Shown here one piece after another: positions 6,048-23,028 of a DNA stretch of 64,000 bases (position 1 is its first letter; every line of letters starts with the position of its first letter). The stretch is from contig NZ_CP082333.1 of NCBI RefSeq assembly GCF_019890935.1, positions 1,700,001 through 1,764,000 on the forward strand, read 5' to 3'. Source of the DNA: Exiguobacterium acetylicum (GTDB lineage: Bacteria; Bacillota; Bacilli; Exiguobacteriales; Exiguobacteriaceae). The position numbers were made by a program, and so were the translations under genes. Below the pieces are notes generated by a model, which did no database searches, had not been told where the DNA came from, and saw only the letters and a program-made list of their open reading frames with translations.

Positions 6048-6063
6048 CGTCCTCCTCCTTCAC

Positions 6064-7209: not shown

Positions 7210-7883
7210 GTCGTCACCTCCGTCACCTGACCATCTTCGATCCGGATGATCCGGCGGGCTTGCTTAGCAATATTGACATCGTGTGTGATCATGATGATCG
7301 TCTTCCCTTCCTCTGAGAGGCTCTCGAACAACTCCATGATTTGTTTCCCTGTCTTTTGATCGAGCGCTCCGGTCGGCTCATCAGCGAGTAAGATCGTCGG
7401 TCGCGTCACGAGCGCCCGGGCAATCGCAACCCGTTGTTGTTGACCACCGGACAGTTGACTCGGTAAGGCATCGGCTTTATCTGTTAATCCGACACGTTCC
7501 AGGAGCTCAAGCGATCGCGCGCGACGCTCTTTGCGCGAGACGCCGGCATAGATGAGCGGTAATTCGACGTTTTGTAAGACGCTCATGCGCGGTAGCAACT
7601 GGAACTGTTGAAAGATGAAGCCAATTTCTTCGTTGCGAATCATTGCTAGCTGATCCTCGGATAGATCGTGGACGAGCTGCTCCTGCAAACGATAGACGCC
7701 GTTTGAAGCGACATCGAGGCATCCGATGATATTCATCAGCGTTGATTTTCCTGAACCCGAAGGTCCGAGGATCGTTACATATTCACCAGCCTCGATCGTC
7801 AGCGATACTCGATCGAGGACGATGTGACGATTGGTTCCTTCGCCGTAAGCTTTTTGGATTTCTTGCAAGTCAACGACCGGCAT
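7206..7883 (-). CDS. MacB/YknY-type ABC transporter ATP-binding protein
   Basis: 225 residues with all ABC motifs: Walker A GPSGSGKST, Q-loop FQQFQLLP, signature [15 protein letters not shown], Walker B ILLADEPTGALD and H-switch MITHD. The sequence type is the LolD/MacB ATPase group that partners FtsX permeases. Its stop overlaps the permease start (ATGA) and its start shares the last base of the adaptor gene, so the three pump genes are translationally coupled. Confidence 0.93.
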   Translation of the reverse strand: MPVVDLQEIQKAYGEGTNRHIVLDRVSLTIEAGEYVTILGPSGSGKSTLMNIIGCLDVASNGVYRLQEQLVHDLSEDQLAMIRNEEIGFIFQQFQLLPRMSVLQNVELPLIYAGVSRKERRARSLELLERVGLTDKADALPSQLSGGQQQRVAIARALVTRPTILLADEPTGALDQKTGKQIMELFESLSEEGKTIIMITHDVNIAKQARRIIRIEDGQVTEVTT

Positions 7884-8740
7884 CAGGACGCACCTCCTGG
7901 TGGAGTCGGAAGAAGACCGGAACCACCGTCTTCACTCGGCAGGAAGACTTCGTCTCCGGCGGACAATCCGTCCTTGATTTCAATATCCTGTCCGTCCGTC
8001 ACGCCCGTCTCGATGTATTGACGAGTCGTTTCCCCGTTTTTTTTCACATATACATACGGACGATCCGACTTCGAATACGAAATGACATCGAGCGATAAGA
8101 CAGGTACATCTTGTGCGAGTTGATATGGTAAACGTCCCTCGACCGTCATGCCGGGTAACCAGTTTGACGAGCTCGGTACCGATACCTTTGCATTGAAATA
8201 CGTACTTCCATTTTCCGTCACAGCTTCCGGACTAATCGATTCGACCTTCCCTTTGATGGTTTTATCAGATGCATCCGTCTGTAGTTCAATCGTATCTTCA
8301 ACTTCAATCCGTTCGATATCTTGTTCATCAATTTTCAGACGAGCGATCAACTCTTTGTTGTCTGCAACAACGAAGAGGACAGTATTCGGGGCATAAACTT
8401 CGCCTTCCGTGACGTCAAGACGAACGAGTTGTCCAGAGCGAGGTGCCTTGAAATCTTCTCCTCCTTCGACGCTGACGATCGTTTGACCCGACTTAACGGT
8501 ATCTCCTTCTTCAAATCGAACGTCGGTGACACGGACATCACGATCACTGATGACCGTCTGTCGATCTTTCGCTTCAAGCGTGCCCGAGAAGTAGAAGAAT
8601 GTTTTTAATGTCTTTGACTCGACGACCTCCTTCGTTCCTTGTGCCTCTCCTCGTCCTAAAAAGAGCGTGGAACCGATTAACAGGAGTACCAGGATGACCC
8701 CTCCACTGATCCATAACCATTTCTTGCGTGTTCGTTTCAT
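7883..8740 (-). CDS. Efflux adaptor (HlyD/MacA/YknX-like membrane fusion protein)
   Basis: 285 residues: an N-terminal membrane anchor (WLWISGGVILVLLLIGSTLFL), then the lipoyl/barrel-sandwich halves (VRFEEGDTVKSGQTIVSVEGG and FKAPRSGQLVRLDVTEGEVY) and a beta-barrel and membrane-proximal domain (SNWLPGMTVEGRLPY). The coiled-coil hairpin between the lipoyl halves is almost absent, which is why it is shorter than YknX (over 370 residues). That suits a Gram-positive pump that need not reach an outer-membrane channel. It is the first gene of the efflux/two-component operon and ends in a Gly/Pro-rich tail. Confidence 0.85.
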   Translation of the reverse strand: MKRTRKKWLWISGGVILVLLLIGSTLFLGRGEAQGTKEVVESKTLKTFFYFSGTLEAKDRQTVISDRDVRVTDVRFEEGDTVKSGQTIVSVEGGEDFKAPRSGQLVRLDVTEGEVYAPNTVLFVVADNKELIARLKIDEQDIERIEVEDTIELQTDASDKTIKGKVESISPEAVTENGSTYFNAKVSVPSSSNWLPGMTVEGRLPYQLAQDVPVLSLDVISYSKSDRPYVYVKKNGETTRQYIETGVTDGQDIEIKDGLSAGDEVFLPSEDGGSGLLPTPPGGAS

Positions 8741-8908: not shown

Positions 8909-9604
8909 ATGGATATTACCTTTCAAGATATTTCGCATACATTTGAACGAAGCGGTGTCCGGACCGATGTCTTGCATCAACTAAACGGTCAGTTTTCGCA
9001 AAGTGAGGTGACGGCACTCGTCGGTCCATCCGGGTCTGGAAAATCAACGTTCCTGAGTCTCCTTGGTTCGCTTGATCGTCCGACGTCCGGGCAGATCCTC
9101 TATGACGGGCAGGACATCACGTCTTGGAAGAACAAACGGTTATCGCAATTCCGCTCGCAAGAGATCGGCTTCATCTTCCAGCAGTTTCACTTATTACCGG
9201 CACTGACGGTGTCCGAGAACTTAAAGGTCGCCTTATTAAAGCAAAAGACCTCTTTCAATCAAGATGATCGGATTCTCGAGCTGCTCGAACGGGTTGGACT
9301 CGACGATAAACGGAATGCTTTACCGGCTCAATTATCCGGTGGACAACAACAACGGGTGGCGATCGCCCGTGCCCTGCTTCATCATCCGCAATGGATTCTC
9401 GCGGACGAGCCGACCGGTAATCTCGATTCCGTGACCGGTGACGCAATCTTCGAGTTGTTACTAGAGCTGCATCGTGAAGCTAAATGTGGCGTTTTATTTG
9501 TCACACACGACCTAGAACTCGCCGAACGTGCCGACCGGATTCTCTTCATGCAGGACGGACGAATCGTTGAAGATCGCCGGAAGCGCACGGTGCAAAGTGT
9601 CTAA
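8909..9604 (+). CDS. ABC transporter ATP-binding protein (LolD/MacB type)
   Basis: 231 residues with Walker A GPSGSGKST, Q-loop FQQFHLLP, signature [15 protein letters not shown], Walker [13 protein letters not shown] and H-switch FVTHD. It is the only ATPase in the 8.9-19.9 kb plus-strand cluster, so by position it is the likely motor for all three large FtsX permeases downstream. AAAAGGAGTGGTCAT gives the ribosome site. It is divergent from the MacA-type efflux operon, with 168 bases between the two starts. Confidence 0.93.
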   Translation: MDITFQDISHTFERSGVRTDVLHQLNGQFSQSEVTALVGPSGSGKSTFLSLLGSLDRPTSGQILYDGQDITSWKNKRLSQFRSQEIGFIFQQFHLLPALTVSENLKVALLKQKTSFNQDDRILELLERVGLDDKRNALPAQLSGGQQQRVAIARALLHHPQWILADEPTGNLDSVTGDAIFELLLELHREAKCGVLFVTHDLELAERADRILFMQDGRIVEDRRKRTVQSV

Positions 9605-9631
9605 GTACTGTTTATAGGGAGGTGTTCCACG

Positions 9632-10405
9632 TTGCACACGTTTCGTGCCAAATTAATCACGAGCTTCATCGGCTCAATTGTCGTTTTTCTGTTGCTATCG
9701 GTATCGACGCAGTCCGCGTATGAAGCATTTCAGAATGCGGACTTCTCGGAACAGGAGACGACGATCGTTCGGGGATGTGGAAAAGATACATTATCAAATC
9801 TGCTATTTTCAAAATATAATTGCCAAGACGATGGCATAATTGACGAAGATTCTGAAGGTGAGATTTTAGGTATAAGTACAGGTAAAACGGAAAAAGTGGA
9901 TGGAACAGCACGTGGAAAAGCCAATGCTACCAAGTCGCCAGGCTTTTTGGAATCAGCCGAAGAAAAGGCAGGCTCTAGTTTTTCGATCATCCTTCTCTTG
10001 TTGCTTCTTGTCGTAAGTTTCATCATTTATTTTGTAATCAAAAAACGAAAGCGACTCACAGGAAAACATACTTTAGACATTACGGAGACTATGGAAGATC
10101 AATCAAATCTTTCTTTCAAGAATAAAACTTCGTCTAAAACAACTCAGTCTATGCCTACTCCTCCTATAGAATCATTACGCCTGATGCTATTTGATTTTAA
10201 CCAACGATTACCACGTGCCCTTCAGCGACGAAGTCACGAATCGTTGACAGACTGGACAGAGCGCATTCATCTGGTGACGCCACTCTCCCCTTACTTCGTC
10301 ACCCGCTACGCAGCGCAAGCAGAAGTAGAAGCACTCGATGCACAAGCGATTCACCATTTCGAACAAGATCTTGCGCGTTATTTAAAGACGCAGCTCTCCC
10401 AATAA
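9632..10405 (+). CDS. Two-TM membrane protein with DUF4129-like C-terminal domain
   Basis: 257 residues, TTG start behind AGGGAGGTG. TM1 is at about residues 8-26, followed by an extracellular segment of some 90 residues with two Cys, then TM2 around 117-136 (FSIILLLLLLVVSFIIYFVI), and a cytoplasmic tail whose end (FNQRLPRALQRRSHESLTDW, then an Arg-Tyr-Ala helix) resembles the DUF4129 tail found after transglutaminase-like domains. The protein coded at 26024-26728 has the same layout and a clearly related tail. It lies between the ATPase and the first large permease and is probably an accessory subunit of that exporter; this is inference from position. Confidence 0.6.
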   Translation: MHTFRAKLITSFIGSIVVFLLLSVSTQSAYEAFQNADFSEQETTIVRGCGKDTLSNLLFSKYNCQDDGIIDEDSEGEILGISTGKTEKVDGTARGKANATKSPGFLESAEEKAGSSFSIILLLLLLVVSFIIYFVIKKRKRLTGKHTLDITETMEDQSNLSFKNKTSSKTTQSMPTPPIESLRLMLFDFNQRLPRALQRRSHESLTDWTERIHLVTPLSPYFVTRYAAQAEVEALDAQAIHHFEQDLARYLKTQLSQ

Positions 10406-10424
10406 CAAGCAAAGGAGACTACAT

Positions 10425-13070
10425 ATGTTACGCTTCGTCATCAATCAATGGCGCCGGCAGCGCGGGAAGTTCATCCTGACGCTCGTCGGTGCCCTCATCA
10501 TCAGTGCCGGACTCAGTTTGATGTTCAATCTTACCGACTCCAGTCAAGGAACGGTCGAACAGACGTTACAAAAAAAATGGTCGTCTGCGTATGACATCGT
10601 CGTCCGACCGAAGGGAAGTCAGCTTGCAAGTGAGTCGAACGATTTACTGGAACCGAACTATTTGAATGGAATCGATGGTGGGATTTCCTTCAAACAATAC
10701 GAAACCATCAAGAAAATGAACGACATTGCCATTGCGGCACCGGTTGCTGTGATGGGTTATGTCAAACTTGGCTTACGCGTTGATGGGCAATGGGACGTTC
10801 CCGATAAACCTGGCTTTTACCGTTTGAGAGAAACGCTGACATCACCTAACGGTTTCGGGGAAAAAATCCTAAGCGACGAAGCCGTTTATAGTGTCAATGG
10901 CAATCAAAACGCACGAGTTGCTGATATACCAGGAGTCTTTACAACTAAGTCCACGTCGCGAATCATCTATCCTCGAACATTCAGCTTGCTGGTGGCAATT
11001 GATCCTGAAGCTGAAGCCAAGTTAGTAGGTCTTGACCGTAGCATCATTCCTATAAAAGGAAATAGTCGCTATTTTACTAAAAATGATAAAGCAACCGAAA
11101 AAGCAGATCCAAATACGATACCAATTCTTTTAAATCCAAATTCATTCAATCAAGGGACTTTTCAGTATTCAATCGAACGACTAGATGTTCCATTCGGTAC
11201 ACAAAAACAACAAAATACATTTTATTCAAAGATTCCAAAGGATTTTACACCTGCGTTTGAGATGCTGAATGAGATTCCAAGTAAAACAATCAAAAAATTT
11301 ACGATCTCTTCAAAAGATGTTGAGCAAAAATTTTTTAACACTTTAACGAATACTTCAACAAAAAATATCCAATCATCACGATTGGATGATGCAACGATTG
11401 CTGATTACTTACAACTCGAAATCACAACTGGACCGCTAACGTACCAATCTGAAAAAAGTCCGTATGCCGCGCGTTGGTCAAATGCCTATCAAGTTGAGAG
11501 TCAGAAAATTCAAGTCACGAATCCATTTTTAAAGGATATAAACTCTTTACCTAAAACCGGATATCGTTCCACGCATTCGTTAGAAAAAAAAGTAAAAGAC
11601 ACTATGGGTAGCGGGAATGATATTTATTATTCTCCCGGCTTTTCAATGAATGTCATCGGACTTTATGATCCTAACAAAATTCGTGTATCAAAAGATCCAC
11701 TTAATGAGTTACCGATGGAGACATATCGTCCTTCTTCAGCTGATCTGGTCTTAGATGCAAACAGAAAACCAATCAATCCAGCTAAATCTATCAATACTTC
11801 AGGCGACCCAGTCGGATTACTGACTAACTCACCGAATATGTTGACGACTTTAGACAGTGCACAGCAATATCGAGGCAACAAATCGATCTCATCGATTCGT
11901 CTAAAAATTAAAGGTGGCGAAACACTCAGCGAAGAGTCCGATCAACTCTTACAACAAATCAAAGCAACCATCGAGAGAGATCCTGGTCTTGTCGCTACGA
12001 TCACTAAGGGTTCTTCCCCACAACCGGTCGTCACGAAAGTCGTCGAACAAGGCAAAACACTCGGTTGGATCGAACAACCATGGGTTCATATCGGTGCTGC
12101 GATGACGATTTTCCGCGAGACGAGCGTCGGGTTCTCCGGTGTCATCTTCGCGATGCTCGCCGTCGCGATCGTCTATGTCCTCGCGACGAGTTATGTTTCG
12201 ATGCTCGCCCGCCGGAAAGAATTTGCCGTTTTACTCGCACTCGGCTGGCGGACGAAGGATCTCTACAAAATCGTCTTGATTGAGGCGGCGATTCTCGCCG
12301 GATTCGTTTCAACAATCGCCCTGATCGTCGAAGGGATCTTCTCATATGTCCGTAACGAAGCGATGAACGGCTGGAGTCTTCTCTGGATCGCGCTGTTCAG
12401 TCTCGTCATCTACCTGGCAGGTGCGACGTGGTCAGCGTGGACGATTCGCCGCATCTCACCGTACGAAGCGATCAAGACCGGTGAATACGCGAAAGCGGCT
12501 CGTGTCGGACTGAAACTTCGTTCGACCGTGACACTTGCACTAAAGGAACTGATCGGGAAATGGAAGCGCAATAGCCTGTCCGTCCTCTCGATTGCTTTAC
12601 CGACAGCTCTCTTAACCTTCTTCCTGTTCGTGACATTCCATTTACAAGGTGTCCTCTATACATCGTGGCTCGGACAATTCGTTGCCCTGCAAGTCGGTCC
12701 AATGCATTACGTAACGATGGGTGTTGCAATTACGATCGCCATTTTAACGACGGGTGAGATCATGTGGCAAAACGTCACCGATCGCCGTGCTTCACTCGCT
12801 GTCTTAAAAGCACTCGGCTGGACGAACGGTGCGATCCGACAGTTGATTGTCCTCGAAGGTTTCCTTGTTGGTCTGATTTCTGGAGTCATTGGGCTGATTG
12901 TTGCCTACACGACGATTTATGTCTTATACGACCTTGTTCCATGGAATGAGCCTTTGTTGATTGGCGTATCGCTCGCCTTACCGATTCTGTTCGGTGTCAT
13001 TGCGGCGTTCATCCCAGCACAACTGGCCGCACGTGTTCAACCGTATCAAGAACTAAAGGACGCAGGATAA
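10425..13070 (+). CDS. Large FtsX-family ABC permease, copy 1
   Basis: 881 residues. TM1 at about residues 15-37 (FILTLVGALIISAGLSLMF), a very large extracellular region up to about residue 545, an FtsX domain with three membrane segments around 560-690 and the coupling motif RRKEFAVLLALGWRTKDLYK, and a second FtsX half (four segments) to the end with RRASLAVLKALGWTN. Residues 1-112 and about 412-881 are nearly identical to copies 2 and 3, while 113-411 have diverged strongly. The middle part has lower GC and Asn/Lys-rich coding. AAAGGAG precedes the ATG. This is probably an exporter or a lipid/peptide-sensing permease working with the ATPase at 8909. Confidence 0.85.
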   Translation: MLRFVINQWRRQRGKFILTLVGALIISAGLSLMFNLTDSSQGTVEQTLQKKWSSAYDIVVRPKGSQLASESNDLLEPNYLNGIDGGISFKQYETIKKMNDIAIAAPVAVMGYVKLGLRVDGQWDVPDKPGFYRLRETLTSPNGFGEKILSDEAVYSVNGNQNARVADIPGVFTTKSTSRIIYPRTFSLLVAIDPEAEAKLVGLDRSIIPIKGNSRYFTKNDKATEKADPNTIPILLNPNSFNQGTFQYSIERLDVPFGTQKQQNTFYSKIPKDFTPAFEMLNEIPSKTIKKFTISSKDVEQKFFNTLTNTSTKNIQSSRLDDATIADYLQLEITTGPLTYQSEKSPYAARWSNAYQVESQKIQVTNPFLKDINSLPKTGYRSTHSLEKKVKDTMGSGNDIYYSPGFSMNVIGLYDPNKIRVSKDPLNELPMETYRPSSADLVLDANRKPINPAKSINTSGDPVGLLTNSPNMLTTLDSAQQYRGNKSISSIRLKIKGGETLSEESDQLLQQIKATIERDPGLVATITKGSSPQPVVTKVVEQGKTLGWIEQPWVHIGAAMTIFRETSVGFSGVIFAMLAVAIVYVLATSYVSMLARRKEFAVLLALGWRTKDLYKIVLIEAAILAGFVSTIALIVEGIFSYVRNEAMNGWSLLWIALFSLVIYLAGATWSAWTIRRISPYEAIKTGEYAKAARVGLKLRSTVTLALKELIGKWKRNSLSVLSIALPTALLTFFLFVTFHLQGVLYTSWLGQFVALQVGPMHYVTMGVAITIAILTTGEIMWQNVTDRRASLAVLKALGWTNGAIRQLIVLEGFLVGLISGVIGLIVAYTTIYVLYDLVPWNEPLLIGVSLALPILFGVIAAFIPAQLAARVQPYQELKDAG

Positions 13071-13139
13071 TTAATTCCTGTTGAGTAATAATTTTTATAC
13101 GTATGTATAGCTAACCAGTTGAACAATAGGAGGTTCTAT

Positions 13140-13421
13140 ATGAAAAAGAGGCTATTAAGAATCGCTACAGAAATTATTGTCGGTATATTAGTTTCTACAG
13201 TTCTATTTTCTTTCGTTATCTATTTCGGATATACAGAAGCCTCCGCACGCAATAGTGCAATAACTATCTTCGGATTAGAAATCTTTAATTTTGAAAATGG
13301 TACAGAAACTCCTAATTCAAACAATATGATGATACTCGGCAGTGTGTGTTCTTTTCTATTTGTCATTATTGGAGAGTTTTTATTCGGACGAAAGAAAACT
13401 GTTTTGAATAGAGCAACATAA
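13140..13421 (+). CDS. Small two-TM membrane protein
   Basis: 93 residues from the ATG at 13140, chosen because AATAGGAGG lies just before it; an ATG 21 bases earlier has no ribosome site. Two membrane segments are clear (IIVGILVSTVLFSFVIYFGY and MILGSVCSFLFVIIGEFLF) with a short extracellular loop of about 30 residues between them. Base composition is AT-rich compared with the flanking permeases. I do not recognise a family. It sits between permease copies 1 and 2 and may have entered the cluster separately. Confidence 0.6.
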   Translation: MKKRLLRIATEIIVGILVSTVLFSFVIYFGYTEASARNSAITIFGLEIFNFENGTETPNSNNMMILGSVCSFLFVIIGEFLFGRKKTVLNRAT

Positions 13422-13531
13422 AGAATCATTATCGATACTAATGAATGTGAAGGTATCTCTCTAATCATCTTTTCGAAATAATTGAAGACCGTATTATGTC
13501 ACTTTTTTTAAATGCATTTTAATATTTACCG

Positions 13532-13555
13532 GAGGGGCAACAGGCGTTGTCCCTC
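13532..13555 (+). repeat. Leader hairpin, copy A
   Basis: GAGGGGCAAC and GTTGTCCCTC form a 10-bp stem (one G-U pair) with an AGGC loop, 7 bases before the ribosome site of the NUDIX gene. The same element with conserved flanks, including the upstream TTAATATTT and the downstream TTCAC-GGAGGAAG, occurs at 16650-16673 before permease copy 3. Confidence 0.6.
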
Positions 13556-13574
13556 TCTTCACAGGAGGAAGTCT

Positions 13575-13991
13575 ATGTTCCCGACATCGATTTATTCGTT
13601 ATCAGCAGGAGCGGTCGTCTTGAATGACCAAAACGAGATTCTTTTGATCCAAGGACCGGATCGCGGCTGGGAGTTTCCGGGTGGCATCGTCGAGCCTGGG
13701 GAAAGTGCAGCTGACGGTATCATTCGCGAAGTCAAAGAAGAGTCTGGAATTGAGATTGAAATCGTGAAATTTTGCGGCATCTATCAAAACCTCGAGGCGA
13801 ATGTCTGTGCGACCTGTTGGCTTGCAAAAGCGATTGGTGGTCAACTGCAGACGAGCAGTGAAAGTTTAGCAGTCGGTTTTTTCCCGCTCGAAGAAGTGTT
13901 ACGACGCGTAACGTGGTCGAACTTCAGCGAACGAATCTTACATATCTTAGATGAACAGTCTCATCCATTTTTCGTAGCCTTTACCCCATAA
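13575..13991 (+). CDS. NUDIX hydrolase
   Basis: 138 residues from the ATG at 13575, which has ACAGGAGGAAG just upstream; the frame is open further 5' without a ribosome site. The Nudix box runs GGIVEPGESAADGIIREVKEESGIEI (only the key residues matter: G, E, R, E-x-x-E-E), all catalytic residues present. The family cleaves nucleoside diphosphates linked to another group; the substrate is not predictable here. It lies inside the exporter cluster, 15 bases before permease copy 2, and its leader repeats before copy 3. Confidence 0.85.
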   Translation: MFPTSIYSLSAGAVVLNDQNEILLIQGPDRGWEFPGGIVEPGESAADGIIREVKEESGIEIEIVKFCGIYQNLEANVCATCWLAKAIGGQLQTSSESLAVGFFPLEEVLRRVTWSNFSERILHILDEQSHPFFVAFTP

Positions 13992-14005
13992 AAGGAGGAA
14001 TGACG

Positions 14006-16633
14006 ATGTTCCGTTTTGTCTTAAATCAATGGCGCCGGCAGCGCGGGAAATTCATCCTGACGCTTGTCGGTGCACTGATCATCAGTGCCGGGCTCAGTTT
14101 GATGTTCAACTTGACGGACTCCAGTCAAGGAACGGTCGAACAGACGTTACAAAAGAAATGGTCGTCTGCGTATGATATCGTCGTGCGACCGAAAGGCAGT
14201 CAGATGACGACCGAGTCGAGTAAGTTACTCGAACCGAATTATCTCAATGGAATCAATGGTGGGATTTCGTTTAAACAATATCAACAAATCAAACAAATGG
14301 ATGCGATTGATATCGCAGCCCCGGTGGCTGTCATGGGATACGCCAATATTGGCATCTCGATTCCAAATCAAATCCACTTTCCGGATGAGCCTGGTATTTA
14401 TCGACTGAGTAATTCACATTATGGTGCTGGTGGATTTTCGAAAGAACTCATTGCACAGGATGGTGCCTACTTTTCAACTATGGAAGAGCCGCTCGTTCCT
14501 CCGAATACGCGATTGATCCATCTTCAAGATCCGAAAGGTTTTTCATCCATACAACCCTTTACCTATAGTCTTATCGTCGGAATCGATCCGGAGGCGGAAG
14601 CGCAACTCGTCGGTTTGGATAAGAGCATCCTCAATCAGAAGAAGTTTCGTTACTTCAACCAGGAGGATGTCCCCTCAGCCAGCAAGAAGAGTTCCAATGA
14701 ATTCAATATCCCGGTATTGATTAATCCAAAATCCTTCAATACGGGGTATAGTCAATTTAAGTTAGAACAAGTTAACGTCGATCTGAAAACGAAACAAGCA
14801 CGCGACACATTTTATCAACGACTAGCTCAATCGAACGCTCCTCAACCTCTCGATCAAGAAAAACGAAAGATCATCCAAGACATTAAAGTCGATGCCTCTA
14901 AAGTCGAGAGCGCTTTTTTTGATTCCCTACTCGGTCAAAAAACTAAGGTATTTCCGCATTCGGAAGCAAATACTAACGCTCAACTCGTCGCCCAGACAGG
15001 CTCATTGACTTATCAAACGGTGAAGAGTCCGTTCCCTACACGATGGGAGAATGCTTATGAAGTACACACAGCACCTACTGCATTCAAAAATGCTATATTA
15101 CCATCCTCTTATCTTCCGAAGCGTGGCTTCCGGACGGTAGATTCTTATGAAATAAAAATGAAAAAATCGGATGGATCTGCTTTTAAGTCAATGAATCCTT
15201 ATCTGACGTTTAATGTCGTCGGTTTGTATGATCCGAACAAGATCAATGTCTCCAAAGATCCATTAAACGAATTACCGATGGAGACCTATCGACCATCGGC
15301 TGCGAGTATCGTACTTGACTCAAAAAATGAACCGGTCAATCCTGCCCAACCGATCAACACGACCGGGAATCCAATTGGTCTGTTGACGAACTCTCCAAAC
15401 GTTCTTACGACAGTCGATAGTGTCCAAGAGGTGATGGGCGATCAATCGATTTCATCGATCCGATTGAAAGTAAAGGGGGCTTCTACTGTCGGTGAACAGT
15501 CAGATAAAACCTTACAACGTATCAAGTCGGAAATCGAACAAGAGACTGGTCTTATCGCTACGATCACCAAAGGTTCCTCTCCTCAACCCGTCGTCACGAA
15601 GGTCGTCGATGACGAGAAGACGCTCGGTTGGATCGAACAACCGTGGATCCACATCGGCGCTGCGATGACGATCTTCCGCGAGACGAGTGTCGGGTTCTCA
15701 GGTGTCATCTTCGCGATGCTCGCCGTCGCGATCGTCTATGTCCTCGCGACGAGTTATGTCTCAATGCTCGCGCGCAGAAAAGAATTCGCTGTTTTACTCG
15801 CACTCGGCTGGCGGACGAAGGATCTCTATAAAATCGTCTTGATCGAGGCGGCGATCCTCGCCGGATTCGTTTCAACAATCGCCTTGATCGTCGAAGGTAT
15901 CTTCTCAATCGTTCGGAGAGAAGCGATGAACGGCTGGAGTCTCCTCTGGATCGCACTGTTCAGTCTCGTCATTTACCTGGCTGGCGCAATCTGGTCGGCG
16001 TGGACGATTCGACGGATCTCACCGTACGAAGCAATCAAGACCGGTGAATACGCGAAAGCCGCTCGCGTCGGACTGAAACTTCGTTCGACGGTGACACTCG
16101 CACTAAAGGAACTGATCGGGAAATGGAAGCGCAATAGCTTATCCGTCCTCTCAATCGCTCTCCCAACGGCACTGCTGACGTTCTTCTTATTCGTGACGTT
16201 CCATTTACAAGGAGTGCTTTATACATCGTGGCTTGGTCAATTCGTTGCCCTGCAAGTCGGTCCGATGCATTACGTGACGATGGGTGTTGCGATCACGATC
16301 GCTATTTTGACGACGGGAGAGATTATGTGGCAAAACGTCACCGATCGCCGGGCTTCGCTCGCCGTCTTAAAAGCACTCGGCTGGACGAACAAAGCGATTC
16401 GTCAGTTGATCGTCCTTGAAGGTTTCTTAATCGGACTCTTTTCCGGTATCGTCGGACTGTTAATCGCTTACACGACAATTTATACACTGTACGATCTTGT
16501 TCCGTGGAATGAGCCGTTGTTGATTGGCGTATCGCTCGCCTTACCAATTTTATTCGGTATCATCGCCGCGATCATTCCAGCACAACTGGCAGCACGTGTT
16601 CAACCGTATCAAGAACTCAAAGATGCAGCTTAA
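14006..16633 (+). CDS. Large FtsX-family ABC permease, copy 2
   Basis: 875 residues starting MFRFVLNQWRRQRGKF; the ATG at 14006 is preferred over the one at 14000 because AAAGGAGG is better spaced and the other copies start at the same residue. Architecture as in copy 1: TM1, an extracellular domain of about 500 residues, then two FtsX halves. The extracellular stretch between the conserved APVAVMGY and GLYDPNKI motifs shares only scattered residues with copies 1 and 3 (such as the IDPEAEAQLVGLDKSI segment), while the membrane parts are almost identical at DNA level. Confidence 0.85.
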   Translation: MFRFVLNQWRRQRGKFILTLVGALIISAGLSLMFNLTDSSQGTVEQTLQKKWSSAYDIVVRPKGSQMTTESSKLLEPNYLNGINGGISFKQYQQIKQMDAIDIAAPVAVMGYANIGISIPNQIHFPDEPGIYRLSNSHYGAGGFSKELIAQDGAYFSTMEEPLVPPNTRLIHLQDPKGFSSIQPFTYSLIVGIDPEAEAQLVGLDKSILNQKKFRYFNQEDVPSASKKSSNEFNIPVLINPKSFNTGYSQFKLEQVNVDLKTKQARDTFYQRLAQSNAPQPLDQEKRKIIQDIKVDASKVESAFFDSLLGQKTKVFPHSEANTNAQLVAQTGSLTYQTVKSPFPTRWENAYEVHTAPTAFKNAILPSSYLPKRGFRTVDSYEIKMKKSDGSAFKSMNPYLTFNVVGLYDPNKINVSKDPLNELPMETYRPSAASIVLDSKNEPVNPAQPINTTGNPIGLLTNSPNVLTTVDSVQEVMGDQSISSIRLKVKGASTVGEQSDKTLQRIKSEIEQETGLIATITKGSSPQPVVTKVVDDEKTLGWIEQPWIHIGAAMTIFRETSVGFSGVIFAMLAVAIVYVLATSYVSMLARRKEFAVLLALGWRTKDLYKIVLIEAAILAGFVSTIALIVEGIFSIVRREAMNGWSLLWIALFSLVIYLAGAIWSAWTIRRISPYEAIKTGEYAKAARVGLKLRSTVTLALKELIGKWKRNSLSVLSIALPTALLTFFLFVTFHLQGVLYTSWLGQFVALQVGPMHYVTMGVAITIAILTTGEIMWQNVTDRRASLAVLKALGWTNKAIRQLIVLEGFLIGLFSGIVGLLIAYTTIYTLYDLVPWNEPLLIGVSLALPILFGIIAAIIPAQLAARVQPYQELKDAA

Positions 16634-16649
16634 TATTTTATTTTGTAGC

Positions 16650-16673
16650 GAGGGGCAACAGACGTTGTCCCTC
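16650..16673 (+). repeat. Leader hairpin, copy B
   Basis: The same 10-bp stem as at 13532 (GAGGGGCAAC / GTTGTCCCTC) with an AGAC loop. It is followed by a CT-rich run and the GGGAGGAAGG ribosome site of permease copy 3. Stem bases are fully conserved; only the loop differs. Confidence 0.6.
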
Positions 16674-16695
16674 TCTCTTCACGGGAGGAAGGATT

Positions 16696-19332
16696 ATGTT
16701 TCGTTTTGTCTTAAACCAGTGGCGCCGGCAACGTGGAAAATTCATTTTGACGCTCGTCGGTGCGCTCATCATCAGCGCTGGACTCAGTCTGATGTTCAAC
16801 TTGACCGATTCAAGTCAGGGTACGGTCGAACAGACGTTACAAAAGAAATGGTCGTCCGCGTATGATATCGTCGTTCGACCGAAAGGCAGTCAGATGACGA
16901 CGGAGTCGAGTAAGTTACTCGAACCGAATTATCTTAATGGGATTAACGGTGGGATTTCGTTTAAACAATATCAACAAATCAAACAAATGAATGAGGTTGA
17001 TATTGCAGCCCCGGTCGCTGTCATGGGGTATGTCATGTCTAATGTTTCCTTTGAAAAAGCGATTAAAATTCCTTCCACACCAGGAATCTATCGTTTTACA
17101 GAAACCACTTATATTCAAAACGGCTTCAAGAAAGAGCGACAATCAAAAACTGTGCTTCATCTTGCTCAAGGAACAAAAGTTCAAGTTCCTGAGAACGCTT
17201 CATTCATTTCTGAACAAATTGATGGTTTTTCAACGGCTGTCGCTAGAAATCCAGTCCTGATCGTCGGTATTGATCCAAAAGAAGAAGCACGGTTGGTCGG
17301 TCTGGACAAGAGTGTACGTACGACGAACAAATCCCGATACTTCAATTCGACCGATCACCATGAGTCAGACGCGGCTAATAATCAAAATATCATCCCGATC
17401 TTAGTGAATCCGAATTCTTTTAATAAGGGAAGTTACGACTATGATATCGAACGTCTCGATGCTCCTTATCAAACCGAACAAGACCAGCAAAAACTAATTG
17501 ATAAGGTCATCAAAACACAACCAAAACGGTCTATTATCAATTCTCCTCTTGCCTCTTATCCCGCTAAGAGTATTCAACACCTTTCCATCCCAACCGCTAA
17601 AGTAGAAGAAACCTATCTGCGAACGATGGTTGAAAAAACGAACAGCTTACAAACGGATTCTGAATATGCAGAAGGAGGACAATTGGTTTATCAATCTGGC
17701 CCTCTTCAATTCCAATCAACGCTTAGTCCATTTACAAGCCGATGGAGCAACGCTTTCGAAGTATCCGCGACGTCGACACGAATTTCAGGAATCGGTATTG
17801 AGAAGGAACTTATTTCAGATAAAGGATATCGCTCCCTCACATCGATGGGACAAAAGGTTAAAAAACCAGAACCAGGCTCATCTAATGTCCGCTTTCCATT
17901 TTTACAATTTAAAGTCGTTGGTCTGTACGATCCGAAAAACATCAAGGTCTCAAAAGACCCGCTGAACGAGTTACCAATGGAAACTTATCGTCCTTCGTCT
18001 GCCGATCTTGTTTTAGATGCGAAGGGGGAACCTGTCAACCCAGCGAAATCGATTGATACGTCTGGTAATCCCGTCGGACTGTTGACGAGTTCTCCAAACA
18101 TCCTGACGACGATTGACAGCGCGCGAGCAGTCAATGGTGAACAAGCCATTTCTTCGATTCGCCTTAAAATCAAAGGCGCTTCGACCGTCAGTGAAGCATC
18201 GGAGCAACTACTCCAAGACGTGAAAAAGCAAATCGAACAGAAAACTGGATTAATGGTCACAATTACTAAGGGTTCCTCTCCTCAACCCGTCGTCACGAAG
18301 GTTGTCGATGACGGTAAGACGCTTGGCTGGATCGAACAACCGTGGATCCACATCGGTGCTGCGATGACAATCTTCCGCGAGACGAGTGTTGGGTTCTCAG
18401 GCGTCATCTTCGCGATGCTTGCCGTCGCGATCGTCTATGTCCTCGCGACGAGCTATGTCTCGATGTTAGCGCGTCGGAAAGAATTCGCTGTTTTACTCGC
18501 ACTCGGATGGCGGACGAAGGATCTCTACAAAATCGTTTTGATCGAGGCGGCGATTCTCGCTGGATTCGTCTCGACGGTCGCCTTGATTGTTGAAGGAATC
18601 TTCTCATATGTTCGTAATGAAGCGATGAACGGCTGGAGCCTTCTTTGGATCGCGTTGTTCAGTCTCGTCATCTACCTCGCTGGTGCGACCTGGTCAGCTT
18701 GGACGATTCGCCGCATCTCACCGTACGAAGCGATCAAGACCGGTGAATACGCGAAAGCCGCTCGCGTCGGACTGAAACTTCGTTCGACTGCGACACTCGC
18801 ACTAAAGGAACTGATCGGGAAATGGAAGCGTAATAGCCTGTCCGTTCTCTCAATCGCTTTACCGACGGCACTGCTGACGTTCTTCTTATTCGTGACGTTC
18901 CATTTACAAGGTGTTCTTTACACGTCGTGGCTCGGTCAATTCGTCGCCCTGCAAGTCGGTCCGATGCATTACGTTACGATGGGCGTTGCAATCACAATCG
19001 CTATTTTGACGACAGGTGAAATCATGTGGCAAAACGTCACCGATCGCCGCGCCTCACTCGCCGTCTTAAAAGCGCTCGGCTGGACGAACAGAGCGATCCG
19101 ACAGTTGATTGTCCTTGAAGGCTTCCTGGTCGGTCTGATTTCCGGAGTCATTGGACTGATTGTTGCTTATACGACGATTTATGTCTTGTATGACCTCGTA
19201 CCGTGGAATGAACCGTTGTTGATTGGCGTATCGCTCGCCTTACCGATTTTGTTCGGTGTCATCGCCGCCTTCATCCCAGCTCAACTGGCAGCACGTGTCC
19301 AACCGTATCAAGAACTAAAAGATGCTTCGTAA
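16696..19332 (+). CDS. Large FtsX-family ABC permease, copy 3
   Basis: 878 residues with the same build as copies 1 and 2: TM1 near residues 15-37, variable extracellular region of about 300 residues, conserved GLYDPKNIKVSKDPLNELP block, then two FtsX halves with eight membrane segments in total for the protein. The first 100 residues are almost identical to copy 2 and the last 350 nearly identical to copy 1. It is the last permease and is followed after 17 bases by the HAD phosphatase gene. The three ectodomains probably see different ligands or partners. Confidence 0.85.
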   Translation: MFRFVLNQWRRQRGKFILTLVGALIISAGLSLMFNLTDSSQGTVEQTLQKKWSSAYDIVVRPKGSQMTTESSKLLEPNYLNGINGGISFKQYQQIKQMNEVDIAAPVAVMGYVMSNVSFEKAIKIPSTPGIYRFTETTYIQNGFKKERQSKTVLHLAQGTKVQVPENASFISEQIDGFSTAVARNPVLIVGIDPKEEARLVGLDKSVRTTNKSRYFNSTDHHESDAANNQNIIPILVNPNSFNKGSYDYDIERLDAPYQTEQDQQKLIDKVIKTQPKRSIINSPLASYPAKSIQHLSIPTAKVEETYLRTMVEKTNSLQTDSEYAEGGQLVYQSGPLQFQSTLSPFTSRWSNAFEVSATSTRISGIGIEKELISDKGYRSLTSMGQKVKKPEPGSSNVRFPFLQFKVVGLYDPKNIKVSKDPLNELPMETYRPSSADLVLDAKGEPVNPAKSIDTSGNPVGLLTSSPNILTTIDSARAVNGEQAISSIRLKIKGASTVSEASEQLLQDVKKQIEQKTGLMVTITKGSSPQPVVTKVVDDGKTLGWIEQPWIHIGAAMTIFRETSVGFSGVIFAMLAVAIVYVLATSYVSMLARRKEFAVLLALGWRTKDLYKIVLIEAAILAGFVSTVALIVEGIFSYVRNEAMNGWSLLWIALFSLVIYLAGATWSAWTIRRISPYEAIKTGEYAKAARVGLKLRSTATLALKELIGKWKRNSLSVLSIALPTALLTFFLFVTFHLQGVLYTSWLGQFVALQVGPMHYVTMGVAITIAILTTGEIMWQNVTDRRASLAVLKALGWTNRAIRQLIVLEGFLVGLISGVIGLIVAYTTIYVLYDLVPWNEPLLIGVSLALPILFGVIAAFIPAQLAARVQPYQELKDAS

Positions 19333-19349
19333 ACTAAGGAGTTGTACAC

Positions 19350-19877
19350 ATGAATTCTATTCAGGCAATATTTCTTGACCGAGACGGAACGATTGGTGGA
19401 GATGCTACCGTCCACTACCCTGGAACGTTTGCGCTATTTCCATACGTTTCTTCGCTAATCGAACGCTTACGTAATCAAGGGATTTTACTGATTGCGTTTA
19501 CGAATCAACCTGGTATCTCAAAAGGATTGGCGCGTGAAGAGGATTTTCGGACAGAATTACTGAGCTTTGGCTTTGATGATACGCTGATTTGCCCGCATGC
19601 CGCGGAAGATTGTTGCACCTGTCGCAAACCATCACCTGAATTATTAAAACAAGCACAAGCAAAACACGATCTCCGACTCGATCAATGTGTCGTCATCGGG
19701 GACCGATGGAGTGATATGATGGCAGCTGCGCACGCCGGGTGTATCAAAATTTTAGTCCGAACCGGTGCTGGAGAGAGCTCCATTCGTGATTACGCTGATC
19801 GCGTGGAACAAGCAAACGTCGACTATATTGCCGACGACTTAACGGACGCGATCGCTTGGCTCGATACACAAAACTGA
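19350..19877 (+). CDS. HAD-IIIA hydrolase (histidinol-phosphatase/GmhB-like)
   Basis: 175 residues with the HAD motif I FLDRDGT (nucleophile D10, acid D12), motif II in IAFTNQPGI, and motif III/IV CRKPSPELL and VIGDRWSDMMAA. A zinc-knuckle-like CPHAAEDCCTC loop matches the histidinol phosphatase / heptose bisphosphatase subgroup. It should dephosphorylate a small phosphorylated sugar or amino alcohol. It follows permease copy 3 with an AAGGAG site and closes the cluster before a terminator. There is no heptose or histidine gene next to it, so the substrate is open. Confidence 0.85.
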   Translation: MNSIQAIFLDRDGTIGGDATVHYPGTFALFPYVSSLIERLRNQGILLIAFTNQPGISKGLAREEDFRTELLSFGFDDTLICPHAAEDCCTCRKPSPELLKQAQAKHDLRLDQCVVIGDRWSDMMAAAHAGCIKILVRTGAGESSIRDYADRVEQANVDYIADDLTDAIAWLDTQN

Positions 19878-20201: not shown

Positions 20202-20466
20202 TTTTGTTTCCTCCTACAGCTTAATACTACTTCTAGTTACTCTTCTAGAATAATACATTAAATCGTGTTCGACGCCTTACAATTATGTAATAAATTTCAA
20301 TTCACATTCTTTTTCCAATACTTCACGTTACACTGAACGTATGAGAAAGAGAAAGTACTCATCGATGGTCTTCTCTTTTACTTGAACAATTAGCTGATAT
20401 TGTACACCTGTTTTTGATCAATCATCATTATGAATCAGCTAATCGTTATTTAAAGGAGTGAACGTA

Positions 20467-21723
20467 GTGCATATCTTAACTAACCAATTAGTCGAATTCA
20501 TTATCGAGAAGTATCAGTTAAATGATTACATTCTCTATGAGTCATCTTACGCTCGACACAAACGGAACGACCAAACCGTCTACTCTTTTGAAACGTTTTG
20601 GATTCCACGAGATGCATCGGTTATCGAGGAAGAGGATAACACGATGCTTCCTGAAGGAACCGTGCAGATTACAATTGACCCTGTCACGAAACGAACGACG
20701 ACGTTATCCTTACACGGTTCGACCCCGATTCATTCCGTTCCTGACGATTTACGTGAGCCAACCACTCGGATCGCTTGGATCGAATCAGAGACTGATATGA
20801 TCCATGGTACGCATTTCATGCTCGAAGAAGAAAACGACACTTTTTTCAGTTATGTGAGTTGTCACGAAGGGATTCGGCTTTCACCCGATTGTTTCATTCA
20901 CTTGACGTTAACGGAAAACGGTCAACTCGATGAGTTGTTCCTATACGGTCCTCACCCGAGTGATCATCATGTGAATCAGGAACCTTTCGCTTTAACGCTC
21001 GAGGACATCGACTCGCTAGCTAAACAACAAATAAAGTGGTTCTCCTATACAAAACCAGGACATCAATACGCGCATACTGTCGTCGAGACGATCGTGACGC
21101 AAGAAGGGTCTATCCTTGTGCCTAGTAAACTGGATTTCACGTCATCACTTGATCGAAATGACATCTTAACGTGGGCAAATCCGTCAACTTCAATTCTCAA
21201 GCGCCATCCTTTCCAATCAGCAGCAAGCGTGACAGCAGAGGATGTGATCATGCAGACTGAACATCCTGATTTTCATCCAATCCAGCAAGAGACAGTGAAT
21301 GCCTGTCGAATTGCGGTTCAAGAAATCGTCCAAAACGTCTACCCCAGTGAATCCGGACAATGGGCGATTCGGTACATCTACCGGCAACATCCCTACCTTG
21401 CTGTCAAATTGTCACGCGCGTATCCGACGTCATATGTTGATCAGCAAAGACGCGTCACAATTCTCCTTGACGAAAAGACGCTTAACTGGATTAGCTTGAC
21501 CGACGATCAGGAACTCCATACCGCGCTCGCATCCGTTACTGCACCAAAGCTCGAGGATGATCAGCAAGACATCATCTTCAATGCATTACGTCCGTACCTT
21601 TTGCTCACGCCGCGTTATGTGTTCGATATCTCAAAAGGTCAATACGTTCTTTGTGGCAAGCTTGACTCGAACCATGCCTACTTACCAGCAACAAATGAGG
21701 TCGTTTTAATACGTGATCTATAA
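20467..21723 (+). CDS. Unknown 418-aa protein, paralogue 1 (possible YcdB/YcdC-repeat type)
   Basis: Starts at the GTG at 20467; an earlier GTG at 20458 falls inside the AAAGGAG ribosome site and is rejected. The protein is soluble and acidic and looks bipartite: an N-terminal half with YSFETFWIP...GTVQITIDPVTKRTT and a middle IAWIESE block, and a C-terminal half ending YVLCGKLDSNHAYLPATNEVV. The alternation of strands and the DxxTKRTT/DSNHAYLP turns recall the repeated YcdB/YcdC domain of Bacillus, but this is a weak resemblance. Its neighbour at 21754 is a clear paralogue, about 40 percent alike by eye. Confidence 0.6.
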   Translation: MHILTNQLVEFIIEKYQLNDYILYESSYARHKRNDQTVYSFETFWIPRDASVIEEEDNTMLPEGTVQITIDPVTKRTTTLSLHGSTPIHSVPDDLREPTTRIAWIESETDMIHGTHFMLEEENDTFFSYVSCHEGIRLSPDCFIHLTLTENGQLDELFLYGPHPSDHHVNQEPFALTLEDIDSLAKQQIKWFSYTKPGHQYAHTVVETIVTQEGSILVPSKLDFTSSLDRNDILTWANPSTSILKRHPFQSAASVTAEDVIMQTEHPDFHPIQQETVNACRIAVQEIVQNVYPSESGQWAIRYIYRQHPYLAVKLSRAYPTSYVDQQRRVTILLDEKTLNWISLTDDQELHTALASVTAPKLEDDQQDIIFNALRPYLLLTPRYVFDISKGQYVLCGKLDSNHAYLPATNEVVLIRDL

Positions 21724-21753
21724 AGTGAAGATAGATATAAAGGAGTGAACGAG

Positions 21754-23028
21754 TTGCATCCATTAACGAAAGATTTAATCTCCCATATCCAAGACAAATA
21801 TCAACTGAACGATTATGTCTTACATGAAACCTTCTATCGCCGTGAAAAAATTCATGGTGAAACGCAATATTCGCTTGAGACGTGTTGGTTACCCATCAAT
21901 CACGGCCCTTGGTCTGAAGATGAGAGTTATCCAGACGGTACGATAGAGATCCAAGTCGATACGGCTACAAAACGAACGACTGCGATCCACAAAAATGGCG
22001 CTGTCGCGATTCATTCAGTTCCAGAGGATTTACGTGATTCAGACATACGGATTGCTTGGCTTGAGCAAGAATTAGGAATGACGTTCGAGAAGCAGTTCAT
22101 GTTCCTTACGCATCAAGATTCTCTGTATCAGTACGTCAACTGTCATCACGGGATTCGCCTCTCCCCTGGTCTGTTCATATCGCTTGAGCTAACGAATGAA
22201 GGAGCGCTCGATTCTTTCAGTGTCTATGGAACCCCCGCGCTGAGTAACAAGTATTCGACTGAACCGTTCACATTGTCACCTATACAAATCGCACCGATCA
22301 TATCAGAACAAATACGGTTCTTTTTTGCACCTGATGACCAACAACCAATACAAGCGCATGCAATTGAAGAAATCTTTGTTTCTCAAGACGGCTTGCGCAC
22401 GTATCTTCTAAGTAATCCCGAAACTTCGTCCGTTGCCATGAACGAGATCGTGACATGGGACAAACCGTCCACCTTCTCCTATACGCGCAAATTGATTAAG
22501 CGGCGAGACGCTGTCACGGCACTCGATGCCGAAGCTCAAACGCCACATCCGGATTACCGACCGTTGACTGACGAGATGCTGGAAACATGTCAGTCGATTG
22601 CTGTAGATCTCATCGCTGCCGAATATCCGGAGGAGTCCGGAGCGTGGACGATTCAAGAAATCCATCGGGATTTTCCATTCATTAACGTAGTAGTACGCCG
22701 GACTCTTGACGACATAAATCTCGCTTACAAACGTCGTTTAACGATTCTTTTGATCGAAGATACTTTTGAAGTCAGCCTAATCGTTGATAATGAAGCATTT
22801 ATTGACCTCTATCATGACTCGACACAAGGATTGCCTGATAGCGTTCCGGAAGAAGTCATACGTCACGCACTCATGCCTTACCTGACATTGAAACCGTATT
22901 ATGTTTTCGACCGGGCACTTGACCACTATGTTCTCTGTGGTTTGCTTGACTCGAACCACGCTTACTTACCGGCAACAAATGAGGTCGTCTTACTCGAAGA
23001 CCTGTATGTCATTTCAGCCACTGATTGA
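21754..23028 (+). CDS. Unknown 424-aa protein, paralogue 2
   Basis: Starts at the TTG at 21754 behind AAAGGAG; the layout ribosome site-TGAACG-AG-start is the same as in the paralogue before it, which also supports both starts. The sequence follows paralogue 1 over its full length (KYQLNDYVLHE, TKRTTAI, IHSVPEDLRD, the YVNCHHGIRLSP block, LDSNHAYLPATNEVVLLEDL) with a ten-residue longer tail. No signal peptide. Its 3' end overlaps the convergent nucleotidyltransferase gene by 20 bases. Function unknown. Confidence 0.6.
   Translation: MHPLTKDLISHIQDKYQLNDYVLHETFYRREKIHGETQYSLETCWLPINHGPWSEDESYPDGTIEIQVDTATKRTTAIHKNGAVAIHSVPEDLRDSDIRIAWLEQELGMTFEKQFMFLTHQDSLYQYVNCHHGIRLSPGLFISLELTNEGALDSFSVYGTPALSNKYSTEPFTLSPIQIAPIISEQIRFFFAPDDQQPIQAHAIEEIFVSQDGLRTYLLSNPETSSVAMNEIVTWDKPSTFSYTRKLIKRRDAVTALDAEAQTPHPDYRPLTDEMLETCQSIAVDLIAAEYPEESGAWTIQEIHRDFPFINVVVRRTLDDINLAYKRRLTILLIEDTFEVSLIVDNEAFIDLYHDSTQGLPDSVPEEVIRHALMPYLTLKPYYVFDRALDHYVLCGLLDSNHAYLPATNEVVLLEDLYVISATD

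What the first reader, a model, noticed from the sequence alone, without database searches (positions are those of the whole stretch)
10425..19332. Three tandem FtsX permeases with near-identical ends and divergent ectodomains
The sequence shows three proteins of 875-881 residues in a row with one ATPase. Residues 1-112 and about 412-881 are almost the same, even at third codon positions in the FtsX part, while about 300 extracellular residues (113-411) have diverged and contain lower-GC, Asn/Lys-rich coding. Diversified sensor or capture domains on a constant engine would explain this, as would gene conversion restricted to the membrane part. I know no described system with this exact set (ATPase, DUF4129-tail protein, three permeases, NUDIX, HAD phosphatase). 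Function is inference.
Basis: partly seen in the sequence, partly recalled or inferred. Interest (0 to 1): 0.72.

Follow-up and report, generated by a model that had tools for sequence, protein, structure and literature searches.

The report
Swappable outer domains on membrane pumps
Three neighbouring membrane-pump genes in an Exiguobacterium bacterium share one engine but carry different outer domains that pass as ready-made pieces between species, and relatives of these pumps sit beside genes for a family of small cysteine-rich peptides that looks like an undescribed bacterial weapon, so the pumps may be a stock of resistance specificities.

Summary
Observation confirmed and sharpened. The three permeases (881, 875, 878 aa) share both ends but have ectodomains only 31-34% identical, with saturated silent sites. 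The block that differs is about residues 105-525, not 113-411.

Shown: in 14 copies from 9 Exiguobacterium species the ectodomains fall into discrete types that moved between species. One type is 99-100% identical, with 98-100% of four-fold sites equal, in four species whose engines differ at 22-41% of such sites. Breakpoints lie near the conserved flanks; cassette and engine trees conflict for two types. Engines are no more alike within genomes than between them, so gene conversion of the membrane part is not the explanation. A longer subfamily (8 copies in this genome) behaves alike.

Lead: some long relatives lie in a cluster with an unannotated six-cysteine peptide, MsbA-like exporter, MauE and thioredoxins; some carry or adjoin an HExxH (peptidase-like) domain. 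19 of 19 Exiguobacterium genomes have a permease, 2 of 19 the peptide.

Inferred: a YbbAP/LolCDE-like (type VII) ABC machine that removes secreted peptide toxins, kept as a cassette-swapped array of orphan immunity specificities. No such peptide was found in the window, so this function is only moderately likely here.

The parts
8909..9604 (+). LolD-like ABC ATPase, 231 aa, the only ATPase gene next to the three permeases
   Evidence: PF00005 E 1e-37; TIGR02211 LolD 229 bits against a cut-off of 308
9632..10405 (+). 257-aa protein with two hydrophobic segments; conserved ends, two alleles of the middle; possible partner of the permease (inference)
   Evidence: no Pfam family over its cut-off, no DUF4129 match
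10425..13070 (+). FtsX permease 1 (881 aa), ectodomain type E1
   Evidence: two PF02687 stretches; types
10737..11999 (+). approximate ectodomain cassette of permease 1 (residues 105-525)
   Evidence: identity profiles and silent-site divergence
13119..13421 (+). LlsX-family small membrane protein, 100 aa
   Evidence: NF033904 E 2e-22, PF19388 E 2e-14
13512..13991 (+). NUDIX hydrolase, 159 aa
   Evidence: PF00293 E 6e-19
14006..16633 (+). FtsX permease 2 (875 aa), ectodomain type E2
14318..15562 (+). approximate ectodomain cassette of permease 2
16696..19332 (+). FtsX permease 3 (878 aa), ectodomain type E3, the type that is 99-100% identical in three other species
   Evidence: model
17008..18261 (+). 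approximate ectodomain cassette of permease 3
19350..19877 (+). HAD-IIIA family hydrolase, 175 aa; neighbour, role in the system unknown
   Evidence: NF005264 244 bits against a cut-off of 217

Best explanation
The cluster is a short array of type VII (FtsX/LolD-like) ABC permeases that share one ATPase and one conserved engine, each with a different extracellular recognition domain. SHOWN: the recognition domains are discrete cassettes (about residues 105-525) that have been exchanged between species and tandem positions, with breakpoints near the conserved flanks. INFERRED: each permease is a transporter of its own; its ectodomain binds a particular secreted peptide toxin of competing bacteria at the outer face of the membrane; ATP-driven movement through the conserved helices pulls the toxin off the membrane and ejects it or hands it to a partner (a fused or adjacent HExxH domain in several relatives, perhaps the 257-aa membrane protein here). 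Because toxin types vary, strains gain by holding several types in tandem and by taking new types from neighbours, as in an orphan immunity array. I put the cassette exchange at about 0.95 and the peptide-toxin immunity function of the window copies at about 0.45; the confidence given is for the whole statement.
For: Cassettes: six ectodomain types in 14 copies of 9 species, 89-100% identical within a type, 30-37% between types except E3/E4 at 60%. E3 is third in the window's genome, second in G006 and first in G010 and G011; its cassettes agree at 98-100% of four-fold sites, their engines at 59-78%, and other genes of the window's genome and G010 at 61-80%. Identity profiles change near codon 105 and near codons 495-540. 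Silent divergence is lower in ectodomain than engine in 14 of 14 same-type pairs and higher in 6 of 6 within-genome pairs of different types. Cassette tree: each of four types 100/100; engine tree rejects E3 and E2 as clades (AU p 7.7e-5, 2.4e-4). Long subfamily, 36 copies: median identity 51% in the ectodomain against 93, 88 and 87% in the other three membrane-protein segments. Machine: two FtsX units, Foldseek hits YbbAP, LolCDE, MacB. Immunity: nine loci combine the six-cysteine peptide, MsbA-like exporter and MauE; eight of them hold a family permease, the ninth ends at a contig edge; three of the nine (G147, G325, G392) came from a genome-wide peptide search. Permeases are in 19 of 19 Exiguobacterium genomes, peptides in 2 of 19. 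The peptide-linked permease of G015 is 94-100% identical in DNA from about codon 120 on to a chromosomal copy of G007, in which no peptide was found, but 84-91% before that. Several types kept in one cell fit added protection.
Against: No peptide of the family was found in the window (best E 0.1) or in the 18 related stretches (best E 0.025, one hit, not credible). The peptide-linked relatives are the long or other subfamilies, about 40% identical to the window copies. Six of the nine peptide loci were reached through the permease, so their permease is no independent evidence. The peptide's activity is unknown, and the permease could serve its export or maturation. The zinc-peptidase label rests on Pfam for two extended permeases and otherwise on the HExxH motif; the separate HExxH genes score below the Pfam cut-offs. 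The E1 pair is not separated by the engine tree, and 15 of 200 shuffles needed as few changes of type as the engine tree. Structural superposition on known transporters is loose (TM-score at most 0.41 by query length among the best 50). Only one genome per species was held.
Confidence: 0.45

Rival explanations
1. Escape from predators: the ectodomain is a receptor for phages or bacteriocins, and alleles are exchanged because changed surfaces are not recognised, as with the variable region of PIP in Enterococcus faecalis. The transporter's own work is ordinary.
For: PIP-EF is a membrane protein with conserved ends and a hypervariable region in the extracellular domain between the first and second membrane segments, with discrete clades that set phage tropism (PMC4999554: abstract and sections 9 and 14 read). 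The geometry here is the same.
Against: Keeping three receptor types in one cell should widen sensitivity, not narrow it (argument, not test). No phage link: 0 of 50,697 phage records encode the permease. The association with the peptide clusters is not predicted.
Confidence: 0.15
2. Exporter or maturation partner: the permease with its peptidase-like partner releases or processes a cell's own secreted peptide, and ectodomain types match the peptide they handle.
For: Peptide, exporter, redox genes and permease are neighbours in eight loci; HExxH domains are fused to 13 extended permeases and encoded next to four others.
Against: The clusters already hold an MsbA-like exporter. Permeases are in 19 of 19 Exiguobacterium genomes, the peptide in 2 of 19, and no peptide was found by the window copies.
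Confidence: 0.15
3. Substrate specialisation without warfare: the permeases extract or place lipoproteins or other surface molecules, and ectodomains follow changing partners such as surface proteins.
For: Closest folds and profiles are YbbAP, LolCDE and MacB. No toxin gene lies in the window.
Against: Does not predict near-identical cassettes in different species or the co-occurrence with the six-cysteine peptide.
Confidence: 0.2
4. Gene conversion restricted to the membrane part: old duplicates diverged everywhere, and the engines alone are homogenised inside each genome.
For: Engines are much less diverged than ectodomains among copies of one genome.
Against: Engine pS is 0.389 within genomes (6 pairs) and 0.396 between genomes (85 pairs); the three window engines are rejected as one clade; the ectodomain is the younger part in 14 of 14 same-type pairs.
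Confidence: 0.05

Closest known systems
[quoted passage not shown]
   Same: Best Foldseek match (9ge6, E 1.1e-5); large permease with a LolD-type ATPase; relatives here couple the permease to a hydrolase-like domain (HExxH), as YbbAP is coupled to TesA.
   Different: YbbP has ten membrane helices and two periplasmic domains (paper); the model here shows about eight helices and one large outer domain. No tandem types with exchanged ectodomains are mentioned in the parts read.
LolCDE and MacB
   Same: FtsX fold, LolD-like ATPase, outer domain after the first helix.
   Different: Scores far below the family cut-offs (lolCE 19-22 bits against 362; MacB 13-20 against 966); two FtsX units in one chain.
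ADOP duplicated permeases (TIGR03434)
   Same: Two FtsX units in one chain; best NCBIfam match of the window permeases. Large paralogous families, often without an ATPase gene beside them: recalled, not checked.
   Different: 38-42 bits against a cut-off of 622; the window copies have an ATPase.
PIP of Enterococcus faecalis (PMC4999554, parts read)
   Same: Variable region in the extracellular domain between membrane segments 1 and 2, discrete allele clades.
   Different: Another protein family (YhgE/PIP); single gene; a phage-infection factor. No PIP model was hit by the window permeases.
Orphan immunity gene arrays of type VI secretion in Vibrio cholerae (PMC5361080: abstract and opening text seen)
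   Same: Tandem copies without the toxin, similar to toxin-linked copies in other strains, spread by recombination.
   Different: Small immunity proteins, whole genes gained; here large ABC permeases in which the recognition domain is the unit exchanged. Immunity is not shown here.

Membership tests
Type VII (FtsX/MacB/Lol-like) ABC transporter | FtsX permease domain | tested here: met
   two PF02687 stretches in each of the three permeases, over the cut-off
Type VII (FtsX/MacB/Lol-like) ABC transporter | LolD-like ATPase gene beside it | tested here: met
   8909-9604
Type VII (FtsX/MacB/Lol-like) ABC transporter | large extracytoplasmic domain after the first helix | tested here: met
   model of permease 3, residues about 55-554; hydropathy
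Type VII (FtsX/MacB/Lol-like) ABC transporter | mechanotransmission driven by ATP | not testable with these tools
   -
ADOP (TIGR03434) | score over the curated cut-off of 622 bits | tested here: not met
   40.1, 42.2 and 38.1 bits
LolC/LolE or MacB | score over the curated cut-off | tested here: not met
PIP (YhgE/PIP) phage infection protein | YhgE/PIP family match | tested here: not met
   only FtsX (and one weak MacB_PCD) in Pfam at E <= 0.1; no PIP model in NCBIfam
Bacteriocin immunity transporter | gene beside the bacteriocin gene | tested here: not met
   window: no peptide of the family, best E 0.1; met for eight loci of relatives
Bacteriocin immunity transporter | protects against the cognate peptide | not testable with these tools
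   -
DUF4129 (for the 257-aa protein) | Pfam DUF4129 match | tested here: not met
   0 of 11 homologues at E <= 10
Diversity-generating retroelement or phase-variation system | reverse transcriptase with template repeat, or a recombinase at the locus | not tested
   no dedicated search; profile breakpoints near conserved flanks fit ordinary homologous recombination

The most novel reading that the evidence does not exclude
An undescribed family of six-cysteine secreted peptides, exported by an MsbA-like transporter and oxidised with the help of MauE and thioredoxins, is countered by a 'capture and cleave' type VII ABC transporter whose ectodomain sets the specificity and whose fused or adjacent zinc peptidase destroys the toxin. 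Exiguobacterium keeps tandem arrays of such transporters without the toxins and updates them by exchanging ectodomain cassettes between species and between toxin-linked and chromosomal copies: a shared repertoire of immunity specificities. The window cluster is one such array.
Probability: 0.3. Interest if true: 0.87.

Novelty: new variant of a known kind. Interest (0 to 1): 0.72.

Why it matters
If right, it gives a function to a group of large FtsX permeases present in all 19 Exiguobacterium genomes held, and it exposes a peptide family for which Pfam and NCBIfam gave no meaningful match in the members scanned. It offers a natural system, discrete specificity modules on a constant engine, for asking how type VII ABC transporters choose what they act on. 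It would extend orphan immunity arrays from small immunity proteins to ABC transporters of Gram-positive bacteria, with the recognition domain as the unit of exchange. Even without the toxin reading, cassettes at 99-100% identity in species whose neighbouring genes differ at 20-39% of four-fold sites point to recent spread of ectodomains under selection.

Tried and rejected
Gene conversion confined to the engine: not supported. Uniform divergence: rejected. DUF4129 label: no match. PADLOC: only generic ATPase matches, a LolE-type CARF fusion model and a NUDIX candidate model, not informative. Phage link: no phage record encodes the permease; no viral structure at E <= 0.001. A six-cysteine peptide in the window: not found. 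Peptide hit in G002 (E 0.04, two stops inside): set aside as chance. ECF sigma factor and a 250-aa partner upstream of the ATPase in L099, L106 and L117 (Pfam on L117 only): noted, not followed. Comparing the fold of a second ectodomain type: the job was interrupted and the tool then switched off. Papers: the ten searches listed no description of FtsX permeases with exchanged ectodomains or of this peptide; I saw listings and the parts of three papers named under Closest known systems; the library holds open-licence papers only.

Rows dropped and choices that matter. Of 24 window-type copies in 18 of 19 genomes, G002's first copy (a stop codon inside) and G003's (an 824-aa open frame lacking about 58 residues) were left out, so one search used 22; pair tests and trees used the 14 copies of nine related genomes (two further rows as outgroup). 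Of 35 loci, 26 stand in alignment A2 with the three window proteins. I named the ectodomain types from the identity table, so same-type pairs were chosen for ectodomain similarity; joint inheritance would still give equal silent divergence along the gene, and the engine tests use other columns. Peptide profile A5 was built from seven peptides, all found beside permeases; profile A6 adds the later ones, so searches are not independent of them. G060's peptide was found only by looking beside its permease. Pfam was run on 5 and NCBIfam on 6 of the 12 aligned peptides, one of the six only at E <= 1e-10.

Full report
What is there. Window 8909-19877 (+) holds a LolD-like ATPase, a 257-aa protein with two hydrophobic segments, three FtsX-type permeases (881, 875, 878 aa), an LlsX-family ORF and a NUDIX gene between permeases 1 and 2, and a HAD hydrolase. 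The DUF4129 label was not supported (0 of 11).

Where else. All 19 held genomes of the genus have a relative at E <= 1e-20. The genus is Exiguobacterium: contigs of same-genus handles have the lengths of records named (for example G006, E. indicum HHS 31; G010, Exiguobacterium sp. Leaf196; G003, E. antarcticum DSM 14480). Window-type copies number 3 in this genome, 2 in four, 1 in thirteen and 0 in one. A longer subfamily (1072-1274 aa in the copies read) adds 8 copies here: five in tandem on the chromosome (C1:1476430-1493476), with no LolD-like ATPase found in the 30 kb fetched around them, one alone, and two on the 133-kb contig C2, each behind its own ATPase. In a class-level draw 30 of 299 genomes, from 6 of 118 genera, have a relative at E <= 1e-60.

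Ectodomain cassettes. Among 14 window-type copies of nine related species the ectodomains fall into six types: 89-100% identical within a type and 30-37% between types, except E3 and E4 at 60%. Types sit at different tandem positions: E3 is third here, second in G006, and first in G010 and G011. E3 cassettes agree at 98-100% of four-fold sites while the engines of the same genes agree at 59-78%; the ATPase, 257-aa, HAD and TetR genes of this genome and G010 agree at 61-80%. Identity profiles change near codon 105 and near codons 495-540. In 14 of 14 same-type pairs silent divergence is lower in the ectodomain than in the engine; in 6 of 6 within-genome pairs of different types the ectodomain is saturated and the engine is not. 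The cassette tree gives each of four types 100/100 support, though deep branches are long and their order unsure, and it rejects the three window copies as a clade. The engine tree has few strong branches (3 of 13); it rejects E3, E2 and the three window copies as clades but does not separate the E1 pair, and 15 of 200 shuffles needed as few changes of type. Engine divergence is the same within and between genomes (0.389 and 0.396). So cassettes have been exchanged across species, and the engines look recombined too. Within types dN/dS of the ectodomain is 0.07-0.31: types are kept by purifying selection rather than by continuous point change.

The same habit elsewhere. In 36 long copies (630 pairs) median protein identities are 93% (N end), 51% (ectodomain), 88% (next block), 87% (engine) and 42% (C-terminal tail): two variable outer modules. 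The C2 copy at 93197 shares ectodomain (97%) and engine (99%) with a chromosomal array copy, but its tail is 83% identical, with 55% of four-fold sites equal. The 257-aa protein shows the pattern on a small scale: conserved ends and two alleles of the middle, 30-43% and 17-26% identical in two parts (15 pairs between alleles).

Machine. The model of permease 3 (mean pLDDT 77.7, pTM 0.66) has one outer domain between the first and second of about eight membrane helices. Foldseek finds YbbAP, LolCDE, MacB and YtrF at E < 0.001, but superposition is loose. By sequence only the last FtsX unit matches solved structures. Two FtsX units in one chain suggest that each permease is a whole transporter (inference), so that three specificities share one ATPase.

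A lead to function. Beside long relatives on contig C2 and on plasmid pE73 of E. alkaliphilum I found small ORFs without a listed gene or family; twelve aligned members have 51-71 aa and six invariant cysteines. Scans of 5 (Pfam) and 6 (NCBIfam) of them gave one weak Pfam match below its cut-off. They lie with an MsbA-like exporter, MauE and thioredoxin-like genes. A profile of seven of them, run on 398 genomes of the class, found ten places in five genomes: this one and G015, which had supplied members, and G147, G325 and G392, which had not; the ten lie in such clusters. A phylum draw of 398 with the wider profile found only this genome. Of nine peptide loci eight hold a family permease; the ninth (G392) ends at a contig edge after the exporter. 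In Caenibacillus (L111) and G325 (L133) no LolD was found beside the permease, and in G060 the exporter is in two ORFs. Six of the nine loci were reached through the permease. In the genus of G147 the peptide is in 4 of 26 genomes; full-length permeases are in those 4 and in 2 of the other 22 (Fisher p 0.001); without G060, found through its permease, 3 of 3 against 2 of 22, p about 0.004 by hand.

Orphan immunity reading. Peptides were found in 2 of 19 Exiguobacterium genomes, permeases in 19 of 19. The permease beside the peptides of G015 is 94-100% identical in DNA (mostly 98-100%) from about codon 120 on to a chromosomal copy of G007, where no peptide was found, but 84-91% before that; two other genes of these species agree at 84-85% of four-fold sites. 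Thirteen extended permeases of other Bacilli have an HExxH motif in the tail (Pfam M1, over its cut-off, in the two scanned), and four loci have a separate HExxH gene, three of them with the peptide; these separate genes score below Pfam cut-offs. A transporter coupled to a hydrolase recalls YbbAP-TesA. Together this suggests resistance to secreted peptides by capture and removal or cleavage.

Limits. The window copies have no peptide, HExxH tail or HExxH gene of this kind found beside them, so the function is carried over from relatives at about 40% identity. One genome per species was available. The peptide's activity is unproven. The receptor reading (PIP) remains possible, though three types kept in one cell argue against it.

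Noticed in passing
L013 7065-7241 and 1267-1449; L119 10831-10998 and 11095-11271; L140 44-602; L076 7379-7546; L111 798-992; L113 3550-3717; L132 5993-6199; L133 7596-7808; L134 8625-8822; L135 4407-4622: Unannotated six-cysteine peptides beside an MsbA-like exporter, MauE and thioredoxin-like genes, likely an undescribed secreted peptide (bacteriocin-like) family.
   Followed up: partly
L132, L133, L135, L136, L097, L098, L103, L104, L107, L109, L114, L115, L116 (extended permeases): Permeases of 1380-1527 aa whose tail holds an HExxH motif, Pfam peptidase M1 in the two scanned; the tail alone also matches 483-492-aa open frames in four genomes of the genus of G147.
   Followed up: partly
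G000 C1:1476430-1493476 (L009, L010): Five long permeases in tandem with no LolD-like ATPase found in the 30 kb around them.
   Followed up: no
window 20458-21723 and 21745-23028: Tandem pair of 421- and 427-aa proteins without a Pfam or NCBIfam match; their number differs between related genomes.
   Followed up: no
window 4066-8740 (-): Divergent neighbour operon: adaptor protein, MacB-like ATPase and permease, response regulator and histidine kinase; looks like an envelope-stress or drug-efflux module.
   Followed up: no
L099, L106, L117 upstream of the ATPase: Sigma-factor cluster gene (ECF type by Pfam in L117) and a 250-aa partner directly before ATPase and permease, suggesting stress-induced expression in those species.
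   Followed up: no
L012 10960-12680, L065 8117-9832, L119 16866-18548: A three-gene group (small regulator, ImmA/IrrE-type peptidase, about 210-aa protein) recurs beside long permeases on contig C2, pE73 and the G007 chromosome.
   Followed up: no
G002 C1:1662166-1664808; G003 C6:150224-152695: G002's first window-type copy has a stop codon inside; G003's copy is an 824-aa open frame lacking about 58 residues after residue 67.
   Followed up: no
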